Source of the DNA: Chloroflexota bacterium
Lineage (GTDB): Bacteria; Chloroflexota; Anaerolineae; Fen-1058
Assembly: GCA_016219235.1 (NCBI GenBank)
Contig: JACRBO010000405.1
Location: 1-8,647 of the forward strand
Length of the DNA: 8,647 nucleotides
Direction of reading: 5' to 3'
The position numbers and the translations under genes were made by a program. Positions 1 through 6,877 of the stretch are shown here, piece by piece (within the stretch, counting starts at the first letter, position 1; every line of letters starts with the position of its first letter). The notes beneath the pieces were generated by a model that was not told where the DNA came from, searched no databases, and worked only from the letters and a program-made list of their open reading frames with translations.

Positions 1-1294
1 AAACGCGCAGGTCGTCTCGCAGCGCCGCGGGGGTATCGAAGTACGAAACGTACACAAAGCCCCGACCCACATAATAGCCCAACTCCCACGCCAGCCAGTG
101 ATCGTACAGCACCGTGCCGGACGGCAGCGTCTTGAGAAACATCGCCACCTGATCGATGCCGTCGTTCGCGCCGTGATCGCCACCGATGGGATATTGCGAC
201 TCGGCGGCGGCAGCGGTGAAGGGCAGAGCCACGATGGTGATGATAGCGAGAATGAGGGACGGAGAGATGGAGTGAAGAGGTGAAGAGGTGACAAGGTGAC
301 CAAGCGCTCGCCCGATCAGTACCGCAGCAATCGGCACGAGCAACAGCACGTATCGATCCCAGATCGGGAAGTTGAACAGCCAGTGCAACACAAAAATACC
401 TGATAACCAGAGCAACAATCGCCGCCCTCTGATCGATACACGCAGCACTTGCGGCAAACCGATCAAACTGACAAGGCCCACAATTGGCCCGAAAAAATAA
501 GGCAAGAACGACAGCCAGCCCATCAGGCGCGGGCCAAGTTCGTCCAGAAAGATCAACCGGAGGTCGCCATAGTTGATCGTCTGCTGCTGCCAGAACGGTA
601 ATCCGCCCCGAGCGCGATCCCACGCAAGGACGAGCAGTGTAACGATGCCGAGGCCCAGCGCCAGCCGGAGCAACGACACGCCCTGTTTCCTTGTTTCCTT
701 ATCTACTTGTTTACTAAACACCCAGATCAACGGCGCAAAAAACAGACCTTGAACTTTGGCGGCAAACGACAGGCCTAATAGAATGCCCGCCCAACCCGAA
801 CGCCCGCGCGAGGCCGCGACCAGTGAGGCCAGCCCGAACATGATCATCATCGGGTCAAGAAACGCCGTAGGGGCGAAAGAAATCGCGAAAGGGGAGAGGG
901 CGAATAGCAGAGGAGGTAGTAGATTAGTAAATTGGTCAATTGGTAAATTAGTCAACGGGTCAACTGGTTGACTGGTTACCGATTGACCAATCACTAATCT
1001 ACCAGTTCCTAATCTACTAATCCCTAATCTCCACACCAGAACCACACTTACCACACTCGCGATCAGATTTGGCACACGCGCCGCGAGTTCCGATTGGCCG
1101 AAGACGTAGAAACTGATCGCGTTGAGGTAGATCAGCAGCGGCGGCTTGTCGATGGGCACACCCGTCAACAACGGGTTCTCGCCGCGCGCGACGGTCAGCG
1201 ACCACGTGCTGAACAACGCCTCGTCAGGATGAAAGCGATTGTCATACAGCGGGCCAAGTCGCAGCACGAAGGCCAGCAGGCAGATCGCCAACAT
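1..1294 (-). CDS. Family-39-type (PMT/ArnT-like) membrane glycosyltransferase, 3' end outside window
   Basis: Probable integral-membrane glycosyltransferase that moves a sugar from a polyprenyl-phosphate donor to a protein, lipid or cell-wall acceptor on the outer membrane face. About 430 codons are open with no stop, running off the left edge. The N-terminus has a short helix (residues 2-17), then the first extracytoplasmic loop with RFHPDEALFS; D24/E25 sit where the catalytic acid lies in GT39/GT83 enzymes. IDKPPLLIYL (48-57) and ELAARVPNLI (69-78) follow, both typical of PMT_2-type proteins, then many hydrophobic segments. The ATG at 1294 leads straight into the first helix, but no ribosome binding site precedes it because the upstream DNA is a heptamer array. 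An in-frame ATG at 1342 lies inside that array and is less likely. Three short-repeat arrays are translated in loops near residues 88-130, 192-204 and 332-345. The family assignment is firm; the substrate is unknown. Confidence 0.85.
   Translation of the reverse strand, partial: MLAICLLAFVLRLGPLYDNRFHPDEALFSTWSLTVARGENPLLTGVPIDKPPLLIYLNAISFYVFGQSELAARVPNLIASVVSVVLVWRLGISRLGTGRLVIGQSVTSQPVDPLTNLPIDQFTNLLPPLLFALSPFAISFAPTAFLDPMMIMFGLASLVAASRGRSGWAGILLGLSFAAKVQGLFFAPLIWVFSKQVDKETRKQGVSLLRLALGLGIVTLLVLAWDRARGGLPFWQQQTINYGDLRLIFLDELGPRLMGWLSFLPYFFGPIVGLVSLIGLPQVLRVSIRGRRLLLWLSGIFVLHWLFNFPIWDRYVLLLVPIAAVLIGRALGHLVTSSPLHSISPSLILAIITIVALPFTAAAAESQYPIGGDHGANDGIDQVAMFLKTLPSGTVLYDHWLAWELGYYVGRGFVYVSYFDTPAALRDDLRV
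243..301. repeat. Third octamer array inside the glycosyltransferase gene
   Basis: On the plus strand the units ATGGAGTG, AAGAGGTG, AAGAGGTG and ACAAGGTG lie at exact 8-bp spacing (267-298). More decayed units of the same period can be traced back to about 243. The clear part encodes HLVTSSPLHSIS (about residues 334-345) just before a hydrophobic segment. The clear units are well supported; the decayed end is a judgement. Confidence 0.6.
684..719. repeat. Short octamer array inside the glycosyltransferase gene
   Basis: On the minus strand four 8-bp units follow one another: GTAAACAA, GTAGATAA, GGAAACAA and GGAAACAG. They encode about 12 polar residues (SKQVDKETRKQG) between the hydrophobic segment FFAPLIW and the next helix, RLALGLGIVTLLVLAW. 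The array is AT-richer than the surrounding gene and in frame. The unit differs from that at 906-1032, but the 8-bp period is the same. Confidence 0.7.
906..1032. repeat. Inverted array of degenerate octamers inside the glycosyltransferase gene
   Basis: About fifteen consecutive 8-bp units fill this stretch. On the minus strand the first half uses units like AGATTAGT and the second half units like ACCAGTTG or ACTAATCT, so the halves are roughly complementary, with symmetry about position 965 (GTCAA-CTGG-TTGAC at 959-972). It is translated in frame as about 40 low-complexity residues (RLGISRLGTGRLVIGQ and onward) between the helix ending VVSVVLVW and the conserved LLFALSPF. Most relatives have only a short loop there, as far as I know the family. 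No target duplication or transposase is visible. Confidence 0.8.
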
Positions 1295-1297
1295 GAC

Positions 1298-1416
1298 GAG
1301 TGACGATTGACGATTGACGGTTGACGGCCGATCACTGACCATTGATGACTCTTCACTTATCACTCGTCACTCATCACTCGTCACTCATCACGCAGCACTC
1401 ATCACTCGTCATCATC
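1298..1416. repeat. Degenerate heptamer array in a divergent intergenic region
   Basis: About seventeen 7-bp units stand in a row. The left part uses GATTGAC-like units and the right part CACTCGT/CACTCAT units in near-perfect alternation. Parts of the two ends are complementary (GAGTGACGA against TCGTCACTC). The array starts four bases from the glycosyltransferase ATG, so it forms that gene's whole untranslated leader, and it ends about 60 bp before the plus-strand methyltransferase. It belongs to the same kind of short-unit array as 6154-6255. Not a CRISPR: units are contiguous, with no spacers. Confidence 0.8.
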
Positions 1417-2530: not shown

Positions 2531-3013
2531 ATGAAAATCAAAATCTTCGCCGTCGGCGGCACCATCGACAAAATCTACTTCGATCAACTGAGCGAGTATC
2601 AGGTGGGCTTGCCCAATGCTCAGGAAATTCTCGACGCGCTGCCGATCGCCTTCGAGTACGAGATCGAATCGCTGTTGCGCAAGGACAGCCTGGACATGAA
2701 TGACGCCGATCGGCAGTTGGTGTCCGAGCACGTGGCGGCTGATTCGTGCGCGAAGATCATCCTCACGCACGGTACCGACACCATGATCGACACGGCGAAG
2801 AGACTAAGCACTATTCCCGGCAAGTGCATCGTGCTGACCGGCGCGATGGAACCCGCGCGCTTCAAGTCCAGCGATGCGGTCTTCAACGTGGGTGTAGCCG
2901 TAGGCGCGGTGTCGTCGCTGCCCGACGGCGTATACATCGCTATGAACGGTCGCATCTTCGATCCGTTCAGGTGCCGCAAAAACCGCGACAAGCGGATGTT
3001 TGAGGAACTGTAG
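2531..3013 (+). CDS. Short single-domain L-asparaginase-like protein
   Basis: A 160-residue protein equal to the N-terminal catalytic domain of asparaginases/glutaminases, which hydrolyse an amide side chain to the acid and ammonia. It has GGTID (residues 9-13, nucleophile candidate T11), ILTHGTDTM (77-85, T82/D83 of the second catalytic motif) and LTGAMEPARFKSSDA (102-116, K112). The C-terminal domain, which completes the active site of full asparaginases (about 330 residues), is missing. Stand-alone proteins of about 160 residues ending in an FDP...RKNR segment, as here, are a known group of uncertain activity, so this is probably complete rather than truncated. No signal peptide, so cytoplasmic. 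It follows the methyltransferase stop closely and is probably co-transcribed. Its last codons, CTG TAG, lie in the terminus of the palindromic element at 3007. Confidence 0.8.
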   Translation: MKIKIFAVGGTIDKIYFDQLSEYQVGLPNAQEILDALPIAFEYEIESLLRKDSLDMNDADRQLVSEHVAADSCAKIILTHGTDTMIDTAKRLSTIPGKCIVLTGAMEPARFKSSDAVFNVGVAVGAVSSLPDGVYIAMNGRIFDPFRCRKNRDKRMFEEL

Positions 3014-3077
3014 GGGCGAGGCTTGCCCTCGCCCACGGCGGCCACAAGCGGGCAACCGCAAGGGTTGTCCCTACAGT
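3007..3077. repeat. MITE-like palindromic element between convergent genes, likely bidirectional terminator
   Basis: A 71-bp element bounded by perfect 9-bp inverted repeats, ACTGTAGGG at the left and CCCTACAGT at the right. Inside are two hairpins: GGGCGAGG/CCTCGCCC (3014-3021 and 3027-3034) and GGGCAACC against GGTTGTCC (3050-3057 and about 3063-3070), separated by a short GC-rich spacer. The termini overlap both flanking genes: CTGTAG at the left is the last sense codon and stop of the asparaginase-like gene, and the complementary CTGTAG at the right does the same for the minus-strand ATPase gene. The paired hairpins could end transcription both ways, although no strong U-tract follows. 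It encodes nothing; a transposase acting in trans would be needed if it is mobile. Confidence 0.75.
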
Positions 3078-3856
3078 ATTTTCTGCATCATCTTCGCCAC
3101 CGCCTGATACAGTGGCGAATCAATCCCCAATTCCACCAGCGGCCGCGCGCTGAATTCAAATTCCTTCGCGCCTTCGTCGTGCGGCACTGTGCCCAATAGC
3201 GGAATGTCCAACTGCTGAATGCGCGCCATCAGGGGCGCGGGCACGTCGCCCGTCAAGTCATTCAAAATCAGATATGAATTATCGATGTGAATGTCCAGTT
3301 CTTTGCGGAAGCCCGCGATGCGCTCCGCCGCCACGATGCCGCGCTGCGTGGGATCGGTGACGATGAGCAAGTGCTGCACATCACGCGTGGTGCGGCGGCT
3401 AAGGTGCTCCATGCCCGCCTCGTTGTCGATGACGACGTAGGCGTAGTTCTTGCTCAAAGCGTCGATGACTTCGCGCAGGTTATGATTCACCGCGCAGTAA
3501 CAGCCTTGCCCCTCGCCGCGCCCCATCGCGATGAGATCGAACTTGCCGCCTTCAGCCAGTGACGATCGAATGTGGTAGTCCAGATACTCGCGCTTGGACG
3601 TACCGCCCGGCAGTGCGCCCATCGCCGCGCCCGCGCCGAGTAACGACTCTTTCACCTGCGATAACATATCCTCGCGGATGTCGCCCACAGTCCAATCCAG
3701 ATCAAGCCCCAACACCATGTTGAGATTGCTGCTGGGATCGGCATCGATCGCCAGCACCGCGCCCGGTTGCGACTCGCTGAGATACTTAATCACCATCGCG
3801 GAGATCGTGGTCTTGCCCACGCCGCCTTTACCCGCTAATGCAATCGTTGTTGTCAT
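3071..3856 (-). CDS. cooC: CooC-family nickel chaperone ATPase, ACS-associated (AcsF-like) branch
   Basis: A 261-residue cytoplasmic P-loop ATPase of the MinD/ParA class. CooC proteins dimerise on ATP, hold one Ni(II) at a Cys-x-Cys site and help load nickel into carbon monoxide dehydrogenase; the AcsF branch serves acetyl-CoA synthase. Visible are the deviant Walker A GKGGVGKTT (residues 9-17), AIDADPSSNL (36-45), the metal motif GQGCYCAVN (C119, C121) and VVIDNEAGMEHLSRRTT (141-157) as the Walker B/switch region. The CYC context and the NEAGMEHLSRRTT run differ from the second CooC here and resemble the ACS-linked type (from memory). The ATG at 3856 is chosen because GGAG sits five bases before it; a GTG at 3862 would overlap that site. 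It starts 30 bp after the hydrolase stop and ends in the palindromic element. Family very likely; CODH versus ACS target is inference. Confidence 0.85.
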   Translation of the reverse strand: MTTTIALAGKGGVGKTTISAMVIKYLSESQPGAVLAIDADPSSNLNMVLGLDLDWTVGDIREDMLSQVKESLLGAGAAMGALPGGTSKREYLDYHIRSSLAEGGKFDLIAMGRGEGQGCYCAVNHNLREVIDALSKNYAYVVIDNEAGMEHLSRRTTRDVQHLLIVTDPTQRGIVAAERIAGFRKELDIHIDNSYLILNDLTGDVPAPLMARIQQLDIPLLGTVPHDEGAKEFEFSARPLVELGIDSPLYQAVAKMMQKIL

Positions 3857-3886
3857 ATTCACTCCAGTAGATAGAAGACGAGAAAC

Positions 3887-5008: not shown

Positions 5009-5794
5009 CTAAACCCGATCGGTGATCTGCGCCTCAAGGGCTTGCGCCATTTGCCGGGCGGCTTCGCGCAGCGCGGGCACGTAATCATACACGGCCACGC
5101 CCAACCGATCGGCTTCCTGCACCAGCAAATCCGCGCTGAGGAAGCCCAGCACGGGCAGGCCGGGCGTCTCTGATCTGAGGAAAGCGGCCTCGTCTTCATT
5201 GCGGACTTTGTTGCCGACGAGCCACAATCGGGTCAGGCCGATGTCGTTGGCCAGTTGTTTGATCTGCGCGGCTGTGCCTAAACTCCGACGAGTCGGCTCT
5301 ACCACCACGATCATGGCATCGACAAAATCGACGGTCGCGCGGCCCAGATGTTCCACACCCGCGTACATGTCCATGATCAACACGTCTTCTTTGCGAAACA
5401 TGAGGTGGGTGAATAGCGTCTTCAGCATGGCGCTTTCCGGGCAGATGCAGCCGGAGCCGCCCAGATCGACCGACCCCATTTCCAACAGGCGCACGCCGCG
5501 ATGGGCCACCGCAAACCGATCGGGGATGTCGTCGACGCGCGGATTGATCGTGAAGAAGCCGCCGCGGGTGCCGGGCTTCGCGCCCGTGCGTTCCTCGATC
5601 AGTTCGTCCATCTCCGCAATCGGATGCAGCTGCGCACGCAGTTCCGCCGGAAAGCCCAGCGCGCCCGCCAGACACGGCGACGGATCGGCGTCGGCGGCTA
5701 GTACGTTGCGGCCCAGGTCCGCATACGCTTGCGCCAGCAGCGCCGCCAGGGTTGTTTTGCCTACGCCACCTTTGCCGCTTAAAGCGAGTTTCAT
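5009..5794 (-). CDS. cooC: CooC carbon monoxide dehydrogenase nickel-insertion ATPase
   Basis: A 261-residue MinD/ParA-type ATPase close in style to CooC1 of Carboxydothermus. It has MKLALSGKGGVGKTT (residues 1-15, deviant Walker A), AADADPSPCLAGALG (33-47), EMDELIEERTG (61-71), INPRVDD (83-89), the metal-binding motif GGSGCICPE (C116, C118), MDMYAGVEHLGRAT (141-154, Walker B/switch) and VGNKVRN (193-199). Those motifs stand in the same order in CODH-linked CooC, which binds Ni(II) between two subunits and delivers it to the CODH C-cluster in the cytoplasm. Its ATG overlaps the stop of the HdrC-like gene in an ATGA arrangement, so the two are translationally coupled. A GGAG lies ten bases upstream, inside that gene. 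No CODH structural gene is in the window. Confidence 0.9.
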   Translation of the reverse strand: MKLALSGKGGVGKTTLAALLAQAYADLGRNVLAADADPSPCLAGALGFPAELRAQLHPIAEMDELIEERTGAKPGTRGGFFTINPRVDDIPDRFAVAHRGVRLLEMGSVDLGGSGCICPESAMLKTLFTHLMFRKEDVLIMDMYAGVEHLGRATVDFVDAMIVVVEPTRRSLGTAAQIKQLANDIGLTRLWLVGNKVRNEDEAAFLRSETPGLPVLGFLSADLLVQEADRLGVAVYDYVPALREAARQMAQALEAQITDRV

Positions 5795-6135
5795 ACCTGA
5801 ATATCTCCAGTCGGCGCCAACCCGCGTCGACGCGCCTCGTCACGTAGGGCCAGCATGATCGCGGGCATGTCCATGGTGCTGATACACATGCTGCGCGCAC
5901 GAGTCAACACACCGTCTGACCACAGCGTTTTGCTGGTCAGCACTTCGTCATCGTTCTGCAAAACCAATTGCAGCATCATTTCCAGGCTCAAATCTTCTTC
6001 AGCGGTGTGCGCGTGCTTGATGCAGTACGAGCAGCGCCCGCAGCGCCGCACGTCATAGCCGGTTGCCGCAAACACCAGCCCGCGCAAGGTATTGGGGGCC
6101 GGCGGTTTGCGTTGCGTAGCGGTCGTCTCTCCCAT
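5791..6135 (-). CDS. Small HdrC-like iron-sulfur protein, coupled to cooC
   Basis: A 114-residue protein resembling the HdrC/4Fe-4S dicluster ferredoxin domain, but reduced. Numbered from the ATG at 6135, RRCGRCSYC gives C32, C35 and C38 in CxxCxxC spacing, without the usual fourth Cys followed by Pro. The C-terminal half keeps the HdrC-like helical pattern (LSLEMMLQLVLQNDDEVLTS, then MDMPAIMLALRDEARRRG) but has only one Cys, C84 in RSMCIST, where HdrC has a second full motif. The four cysteines could hold a single [4Fe-4S] cluster. A TTG three codons upstream (6144) is possible, but the ATG is better spaced from a GGGA. It overlaps cooC by four bases, so an electron-transfer or scaffold role in CODH metallocentre assembly is plausible (inference). 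A frameshifted paralogue lies upstream at 6586-6877. Confidence 0.7.
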   Translation of the reverse strand: MGETTATQRKPPAPNTLRGLVFAATGYDVRRCGRCSYCIKHAHTAEEDLSLEMMLQLVLQNDDEVLTSKTLWSDGVLTRARSMCISTMDMPAIMLALRDEARRRGLAPTGDIQV

Positions 6136-6153
6136 GTAGTTCAATCCCGTTTT

Positions 6154-6255
6154 CGGTAATCGGTCAATCGGTAATCGGTCAATCGGTGATCAGTCAATCG
6201 GTGATCGGTTGACCAGTTACCAGTTACCAATCACCAGTTACCAATCACCAATCAC
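6154..6255. repeat. Inverted array of degenerate heptamers between cupin and HdrC-like genes
   Basis: The left half alternates CGGTAAT- or CGGTGAT-type heptamers with CGGTCAAT-type octamers, giving a 15-bp repeat. The right half is pure heptamers (CAGTTAC and CAATCAC). The halves are approximate reverse complements about position 6209 and could form a long imperfect hairpin. It lies right after the cupin stop (6259, minus strand) and 18 bp before the HdrC-like start, so it may separate or modulate the two units. The units are related to those translated inside the glycosyltransferase at 906-1032. Confidence 0.85.
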
Positions 6256-6585: not shown

Positions 6586-6877
6586 TCAATCCTCCTGTTG
6601 TATCAGACCACACTGCAACGCTTCCGCGCGCAGCGCCGCTATCGCTGTGGCGAAATCCAATCGATTCGCATAAACCCGCTGCGCTTCAGGCAAGACCGGC
6701 CCAGCATAGGCCGGCAGATAGCGCAGACACGCTCGTCATTGACGCTGAGCCGCTGCACCCAGTGTTCCAGTCCGCCCGCTGCATCGTCACCGGCCACGCT
6801 AGAGCATAAACCACAGTGACAACACGGCACCCGTCCTGGCCGGTTGCCGCCAGCACCAGCGGACGCAAATTCGTCAT
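6586..6877 (-). pseudogene. Frameshifted paralogue of the HdrC-like iron-sulfur protein
   Basis: Three reading-frame segments, joined in order, give one protein of about 95 residues matching the intact HdrC-like gene at 5791-6135. The first frame reads MTNLRPLVLAATGQD (intact copy: NTLRGLVFAATGYD). The second reads RVPCCHCGLCSS, with the same CxxCxxC spacing as RRCGRCSYC, and continues to VQRLSVNDERV (intact: LQLVLQNDDEVL). The third reads RYLPAYAGPVLP and then LDFATAIAALRAEALQCGL (intact: MDMPAIMLALRDEARRRGL), ending TGA directly before the cupin ATG. Both shifts behave as a missing base, near 6833-6834 and 6723-6724. The fourth cysteine of the intact copy aligns with a Tyr (RVYANRLDF). Two sequencing errors are possible, but every other gene in the window reads cleanly, so a decayed gene is more likely. 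Confidence 0.7.
6591..6596 (-). promoter_or_regulatory. Strong ribosome binding site of the cupin
   Basis: On the minus strand AGGAGG stands five bases before the cupin ATG at 6585, inside the last codons of the frameshifted HdrC-like gene. The cupin can therefore be translated even though the upstream gene is broken. Confidence 0.85.

What the first reader, a model, noticed from the sequence alone, without database searches (positions are those of the whole stretch)
906..1032. Intergenic-type inverted octamer array translated in frame inside a membrane glycosyltransferase
About fifteen 8-bp units arranged as an inverted repeat are read through without a stop and add about 40 low-complexity residues in a loop between two helices. 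A related array at 6154-6255 is intergenic. This suggests a short-unit element that expands or inserts in coding DNA and is tolerated where a loop is free.
Basis: partly seen in the sequence, partly recalled or inferred. Interest (0 to 1): 0.7.

Follow-up and report, generated by a model that had tools for sequence, protein, structure and literature searches.

The report
Repeat arrays translated inside protein loops
Short DNA repeats that mostly sit between genes have taken over loops of working proteins in a group of environmental bacteria, where they are read as protein, and related species carry different repeats in the same loops.

Summary
Window 906-1032 is an array of mixed 7- and 8-bp units, G-rich arm left, C-rich arm right, read without a stop in a GT-C/PMT_2 membrane glycosyltransferase of a Thermoflexales-like bacterium (Chloroflexota). 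It codes for a loop predicted unstructured between two helices, about 24 residues longer than in 14 distant homologues.

Such arrays are dispersed in two relatives (at least 54 and 49 matches) and nearly absent from two others (0 and 1), whose same loop holds other interspersed repeats. Loop types are scattered over the gene tree. Window and G004 carry arrays at the same four places of this gene. TrmD loops show the same turnover.

Closest known: convergent heptamer repeats of Xanthomonas/Nostoc, and Rickettsia palindromic elements for in-frame insertion. Repeated re-occupation of the same loops by different repeat families is the new part. How arrays arise is inferred.

The parts
906..1032 (.). 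in-frame array of 7/8-bp units, G-rich arm left, C-rich arm right on +; edges reach about 901 and 1035
911..962 (+). left, G-rich arm (units such as GGTCAATT, GGTAAATT, AGTAGATT)
   Evidence: read from the sequence; skew +0.48 left of the split
963..1032 (+). right, C-rich arm (units such as ACCGATTG, ACCAATCA, CTAATCTA)
   Evidence: read from the sequence; skew -0.73 right of the split
2..1363 (-). host gene: PMT_2 / GT-C membrane glycosyltransferase, cut by the window edge at its C-terminal end
   Evidence: PF13231, E 1.8e-6; model pLDDT 80.9, pTM 0.84; best solved match ArnT 5EZM
272..299 (.). small GTGAAGAG-type array in the same gene, loop near residues 358-365
   Evidence: coincides with a G004 array in the protein alignment
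684..712 (.). small TGTTTCCT-type array in the same gene, loop near residues 217-226
   Evidence: next to a G004 array in the protein alignment
1294..1416 (.). 7-bp TGACGAT / TCACTCG array, G-left/C-right, covering the N-terminal codons of the gene and the divergent intergenic stretch
   Evidence: unit content differs in G001
6153..6255 (.). intergenic array of the same unit type; absent from the orthologous site of G001 (short TCACTCG array there) and G002

Best explanation
The stretch is a lineage-specific, convergent (G-left/C-right) array of 7/8-bp repeats of the dispersed kind that otherwise lies mostly between genes. It came to occupy a short cytosolic-type loop of a GT-C membrane glycosyltransferase, taking the place of the native residues, and it persists because the frame stays open and the loop tolerates length change. 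Units are gained and lost in frame-keeping sets (shown once: 15 nt, one 7 plus one 8). The same loop, and loops of TrmD and the MutL linker, are re-occupied over time by other array types or by unrelated palindromic repeats. Shown: array nature, in-frame reading, absence from distant homologues, dispersal in relatives, different repeat families at one site, frame-keeping indel, site-by-site turnover between orthologous intergenic sites. Inferred: how a new array arises (replication slippage and strand switching at short inverted units, or addition at broken ends), whether type swaps are new insertions or exchange of alleles by recombination, and the side of the membrane.
For: Array and open frame. 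Distant loci lack it, 14 of 14. Dispersed copies: at least 54 matches in G001 and 49 in G004, 0 in G002 and 1 weak one in G003 (40 of 88 and 40 of 64 candidates were scored, and some places count on both strands). Loop DNA: window, G001, G004 octamer-type arrays; G003 a CTCACCCC..GAGAGGGG element, G002 a CTGAGC..CGAAG element, both motifs repeated in their genomes (37 in G003, 8 in G002, the loop copies included). Window-G001 indel of exactly 15 nt in the array; intergenic array 6153-6255 missing in G001. Of 34 other arrays of 100 bp or more only 6 of 204 frames are open, while the 4 in-gene ones are open in the coding frame. Four array places in the gene match between window and G004 with different units. 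In-frame arrays also in TrmD, MutL, a YjeF-type protein and two further membrane proteins. Loop types need 40 changes on a tree of 108 homologues, with unlike sisters at SH-aLRT 97-100. Loop modelled at pLDDT below 50 for residues 118-131 between helices 92-115 and 142-156.
Against: Loop types were assigned by eye from peptides for 94 of 108 proteins, 14 left unassigned; DNA of the loop was seen for the window and G001-G004 only. The trees are quick ones with 39 of 105 (GT) and 62 of 115 (TrmD) inner branches open, so part of the scatter may be tree error. Full-length loop elements of G003 had no second full copy. The hairpin is not conserved: of 40 window pairs 25 are unchanged, 4 kept by one change, 2 by two, 3 broken and 6 lost to the indel in G001. 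dN/dS rests on one pair and 37 codons, the indel left out.
Confidence: 0.8

Rival explanations
1. Type swaps in the loop are mostly exchange of ready-made alleles between related species by homologous recombination; each array type entered the gene once or a few times.
For: Octamer-type alleles share end residues (VWRLG ... LLPP) across the tree; unlike sisters occur at short distances, e.g. TrmD P0148/P0232 at 0.05 changes per site, support 99.
Against: The shared end residues are themselves array-coded in the window DNA (WRLG and NLLP lie in units), so they need no common origin; intergenic sites without homologous coding flanks show the same turnover; no recombination test was run.
Confidence: 0.3
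2. A mobile palindromic element (RPE- or MITE-like), moved by a transposase, inserted in frame.
For: In-frame palindromic insertions in Rickettsia are the precedent (passages of PMC10969869 and PMC2229807); copies are dispersed.
Against: No fixed ends, no fixed length and no element consensus: units differ within and between arrays; no target duplication seen at the 6153 site against G001, where however a short other array lies, so this is a weak test.
Confidence: 0.12
3. Ordinary low-complexity coding loop that resembles the intergenic arrays by chance.
For: Purifying selection on the loop between window and G001.
Against: 7/8-bp periodicity crosses the codon frame; fold z -7.7, 0 of 200 shuffles; dispersed relatives in two genomes; absent in distant homologues.
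Confidence: 0.03
4. The gene is decaying or the array is an assembly artefact.
For: Metagenome source; the gene is cut by the window edge.
Against: The same array place is found in three independent assemblies (window, G001, G004), ORFs run through without a stop, dN/dS 0.11 in the rest of the gene.
Confidence: 0.02

Closest known systems
Heterogeneous G-rich heptamer repeats (GGGANTN)n of Xanthomonas and Nostoc (PMC4692102, passages read)
   Same: Short G-rich units, heterogeneous, dispersed, mostly intergenic with a minority in genes (11% and 7% there), and pairs in convergent orientation (70 and 75 cases there).
   Different: Window units are mostly GTNA-type and mix 7 and 8 bp; here arrays sit in frame in the same loops of conserved genes and change type between relatives; the passages read do not describe that.
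Rickettsia palindromic elements (PMC10969869, PMC2229807, passages read)
   Same: Palindromic repeats of about 100-150 bp read in frame inside conserved proteins.
   Different: RPEs are element families with terminal inverted repeats; here there is no fixed sequence or end, only short units, and several families use one loop.
Short tandemly repeated repetitive (STRR) heptamers of cyanobacteria (recalled; listing only)
   Same: 7-bp tandem units, dispersed.
   Different: Translated, loop-bound copies are not part of what I recall of them; the primary papers were not read.
DRT10 reverse transcriptase that makes tandem-repeat DNA (PMC12632851, passages read)
   Same: Adds short tandem units (9 nt in one system) to a DNA end.
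   Different: An antiviral cDNA system; no reverse transcriptase family match in G004, which is rich in arrays.

Membership tests
Convergent G-rich heptamer repeats (GGGANTN)n | unit consensus GGGANTN | tested here: not met
   Window 906-1032 reads mostly GTNA-type units, one GGGATTA on the minus strand (by eye). The TrmD loops of G001, G003, G004 do carry GGGATCA/GGGGATC units (by eye).
Convergent G-rich heptamer repeats (GGGANTN)n | two arms in convergent orientation | tested here: met
   56 of 61 arrays of 75 bp or more are G-left/C-right, 0 the reverse, 5 one-sided (the probes have this polarity themselves). Without probes: 18 of 20 skewed arms with a partner follow it, 2 do not; 11 of 13 if contigs holding the GT gene are set aside.
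Convergent G-rich heptamer repeats (GGGANTN)n | folds into G-quadruplexes | not tested
   -
Rickettsia palindromic elements | in-frame insertion in conserved protein genes | tested here: met
Rickettsia palindromic elements | element family with conserved sequence and terminal inverted repeats | tested here: not met
   No common ends among the arrays; units vary.
MITE / REP-type mobile element | target-site duplication or fixed termini | tested here: inconclusive
   None seen at the 6153 site against G001, which itself holds a short other array there.
Telomerase-like / DRT10 repeat synthesis | a reverse transcriptase gene in the genome | tested here: not met
   PF00078: 2 matches in G001, 3 in G002, 4 in G003, 0 in G004; the assemblies may be incomplete and not every RT may match this model.
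GT-C / PMT_2 glycosyltransferase (host protein) | PF13231 match and GT-C fold | tested here: met
   PF13231 at E 1.8e-6, above its cut-off; ArnT 5EZM best PDB match, E 1e-5, TM 0.56 by query length.

The most novel reading that the evidence does not exclude
The polarity, G-rich arm always 5' and C-rich arm 3' on either strand, holding even when the two arms are of different unit families (TrmD loops of G001 and G043, fold z +1.3 and +1.7), is what one expects if G-rich units are added to both 3' ends of a broken chromosome and the ends are then joined: a telomere-like end addition that leaves translated scars in loops. The loops of GT, TrmD and MutL would be places where such scars are survivable.
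Probability: 0.08. Interest if true: 0.88.

Novelty: new variant of a known kind. Interest (0 to 1): 0.6.

Why it matters
It shows that repeat DNA is a steady source of new protein segments in free-living bacteria: the same loops of conserved proteins (a glycosyltransferase, TrmD, the MutL linker) carry different repeat-derived peptides in close relatives, so birth, swap and loss of a translated repeat can be compared species by species. Between window and G001 the repeat-coded residues already look constrained, which makes the step from junk to kept protein testable. It also warns that odd low-complexity peptides in Chloroflexota proteins may be translated repeats, and it gives a clean polarity rule that any model of how such arrays arise must explain.

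Tried and rejected
Whole-genome work on the window's own genome failed: none is held. Rfam found nothing in the window. A hairpin with a kept structure was considered and not supported: strong in the window but only partly kept in G001, and only 2 of 7 periodic TrmD loops fold clearly better than shuffles (z 1.3, -1.0, -1.2, -1.5, -3.8, -7.6, 1.7). A reverse transcriptase as source of the units was tested and not supported. In TrmD loops the polarity is partly background: besides the 7 periodic loops, 8 of the 21 other measured loops also have left skew above 0 and right skew below 0, with smaller values. In the TrmD tree two loop types (WKL, RNAE) are no more clustered than in many shuffles (58 and 86 of 500) and only 11 of 115 inner branches are starred, so the TrmD scatter is weaker evidence than the GT one. 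Loop types HAE and LTP in the GT tree are not clustered at all (500 of 500 shuffles as low). TRF arrays in the sampled contigs include some that are plain coding repeats (for example L079). The MutL alignment listing was cut by the output limit, so no count is given for MutL. The TrmD model is weak (pLDDT 62, pTM 0.57) and is used only, where the two best solved TrmDs skip profile positions 75-100.

Rows dropped: GT homologues under 440 aa were left out of the alignment and tree (108 of 120 kept); MutL rows under 560 aa (114 of 120 kept); of 26 class loci L031-L056, 14 gave no usable loop because they lie on the other strand, and read some of them with a second pattern; L037 and L042 have longer, unrelated loops. 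Two TrmD loops (L247, L256) were too short to measure.

Literature: ten searches listed no paper on in-frame 7/8-bp arrays in Chloroflexota loops; listings are capped and the library holds open-licence papers only.

Full report
What is there. The window's first gene (2-1363, minus; cut by the window edge) is a PMT_2/GT-C membrane protein (PF13231, E 1.8e-6; model pLDDT 80.9 and pTM 0.84; best solved match ArnT 5EZM). Window 906-1032 lies inside it and is built of 7- and 8-bp units, G-rich on the left and C-rich on the right of the + strand. It folds far better than shuffles (z -7.7 and -5.8 on the two strands, 0 of 200 as good) and stays open in the gene's frame. In the model it is the stretch between helices 92-115 and 142-156, with residues 118-131 under pLDDT 50, so a disordered loop is the prediction.

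Is it ancestral? No. The window's closest named relative is a Thermoflexales bin (G001; 84.5% DNA identity over 3.4 kb). Fourteen of 14 more distant loci (L006-L019) have 43-44 residues from ARxP to SPFxI; the window has 67. Among 108 homologues of 440 aa or more, hand-sorted loop types are: octamer-array type 31, none 37, HAE type 10, LTP type 9, heptamer type 4, two small types 2 and 1, and 14 unassigned. Some close homologues have only six or seven residues there (P0012, P0024, P0028, P0030, P0031), so the array took the place of the native loop or was lost again.

Dispersed copies. A search with the window array gives at least 54 matches in G001 and 49 in G004, none in G002 and one weak match in G003 (40 of 88 and 40 of 64 candidates were scored in G001 and G004, and some places appear on both strands). 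The DNA of the same loop fits this: window, G001 and G004 carry octamer-type arrays, while G003 carries a CTCACCCC..GAGAGGGG element and G002 a CTGAGC..CGAAG element. Both motifs recur in those genomes: CTCACCCCYNGCCCCTCTCC with up to 2 mismatches 25, 40, 37 and 4 times in G001-G004 with 0 in the reversed control; CTGAGCNNAGN{0,1}CGAAG 13, 8, 28 and 10 times with 1 in the control. The full G003 loop element has no second full-length copy; the G002 one has a second copy at 84% over 76 nt.

Turnover at one place. Window and G001 share the loop array but differ by one indel of exactly 15 nt, one 7- and one 8-bp unit, which keeps the frame. The intergenic array 6153-6255 is absent from G001, where a short TCACTCG array lies; G002 has none, and G003 has a GACCTGGCAGGTT palindrome (no pair found for G004). 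In the gene itself arrays sit at four places (N-terminus, the loop of the finding, near residues 217-226 and near 358-370) in both the window and G004, overlapping or next to each other in the alignment, with different units. On the GT tree the types need 40 changes (32 without the unassigned rows), the octamer type 16, of which starred branches force 9; sisters of unlike type have SH-aLRT 97-100 in four cases (P0047/P0056, P0026/P0054, P0058/P0074, P0072/P0075). The tree is a quick one with 39 of 105 inner branches open.

Other genes. Of 89 array stretches found with four probes in stretches of G001, G004 and the window, 7 were flagged as lying in a gene by the script and two more are the known GT copies it missed; the stretches were picked around earlier matches, so this is not a random sample. 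Besides GT these are TrmD, MutL (a 155-bp array in the linker), a YjeF-type protein (weak coding score on one side), a PMT_2 protein and a TMEM260-like protein. In 120 TrmD homologues 74 have eight or more residues at the loop, of clearly different peptide types; P0148 and P0232 are sisters (support 99, 0.05 changes per site) with unlike loops. In the DNA of 30 TrmD loci, 28 measured, 7 are strongly 7/8-periodic (0 of 200 shuffles): 4 of 4 Thermoflexales genomes and 3 of 24 others. The two best solved TrmDs skip the matching profile positions 75-100.

Selection. Arrays of 100 bp or more outside genes are rarely readable: 6 of 204 frames open in 34 arrays; the four in-gene ones are all open in the coding frame. 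Between window and G001 the loop has dN/dS 0.11 (37 codons, 81% identity), the rest 0.11 (202 codons, 87% identity). This is one pair, with the indel left out. Against a generally constrained loop: in 34 of 36 pairs among nine octamer-type proteins the loop is less alike than the rest; P0009/P0010 share 96% outside and 57% inside. P0001/P0002 is the opposite (83% outside, 95% inside). The picture is long quiet spells and sudden replacement.

Architecture. Of 61 arrays of 75 bp or more, 56 are G-left/C-right, 5 one-sided and none the reverse; 600 random windows gave 163, 245 and 192. Since the probes have that polarity, I also took single arms found by TRF in contigs picked by number (560 kb): 22 of 56 have an inverted partner nearby, 20 of them are skewed, and 18 of these follow the rule; 11 of 13 without the contigs that hold the GT gene. 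The two exceptions are CACGCA-type arms. In 52 of 61 arrays the strand folds better than with one half flipped (median z -4.0), yet TrmD loops keep the polarity with arms that hardly pair (z up to +1.7), with the caution that some non-periodic TrmD loops lean the same way.

How it most likely works. Shown: a dispersed array type occupies a loop in frame, changes length in frame-keeping steps, and is replaced by other repeats in relatives. Inferred: arrays arise and grow at short inverted units by slippage and strand switching, or by addition at broken ends; most insertions in genes are lost by selection, and those in loops that tolerate length survive. Whether swaps are new arrays or imported alleles is open. 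A reverse transcriptase is not needed and none was found in G004.

Compared with what is known. Convergent, heterogeneous, G-rich heptamer repeats are described for Xanthomonas and Nostoc (passages of PMC4692102); in-frame palindromic insertions for Rickettsia (passages of PMC10969869 and PMC2229807). A survey of prokaryotic satellites notes heptamer-derived families and lists a Chloroflexus genome among satellite-rich ones (passages of PMC6749651). What I did not find in ten searches is the repeated, in-frame use of the same loops by several repeat families.

Noticed in passing
window 3007-3077: GC-rich palindrome between the ends of two convergent genes; G001 has a different palindrome at the same place. 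A two-way terminator or another repeat family.
   Followed up: partly
window 3071-3862 and 5009-5794: Two ParA/NifH-like ATPase genes near each other, function not studied.
   Followed up: no
window 6618-6868: Stretch with direct-repeat matches to 5725-5755 and 6044-6087, perhaps a decayed copy of part of the 5791-6144 ORF region.
   Followed up: no
L254, L229 (TrmD loops of G043 and G001): Chimeric arrays: left and right arm of different unit families, same polarity.
   Followed up: partly
P0106: Homologue with a long WLVSWLVGW..NHQTIQRTNHS insert at the third hot loop, by look another translated octamer array.
   Followed up: no
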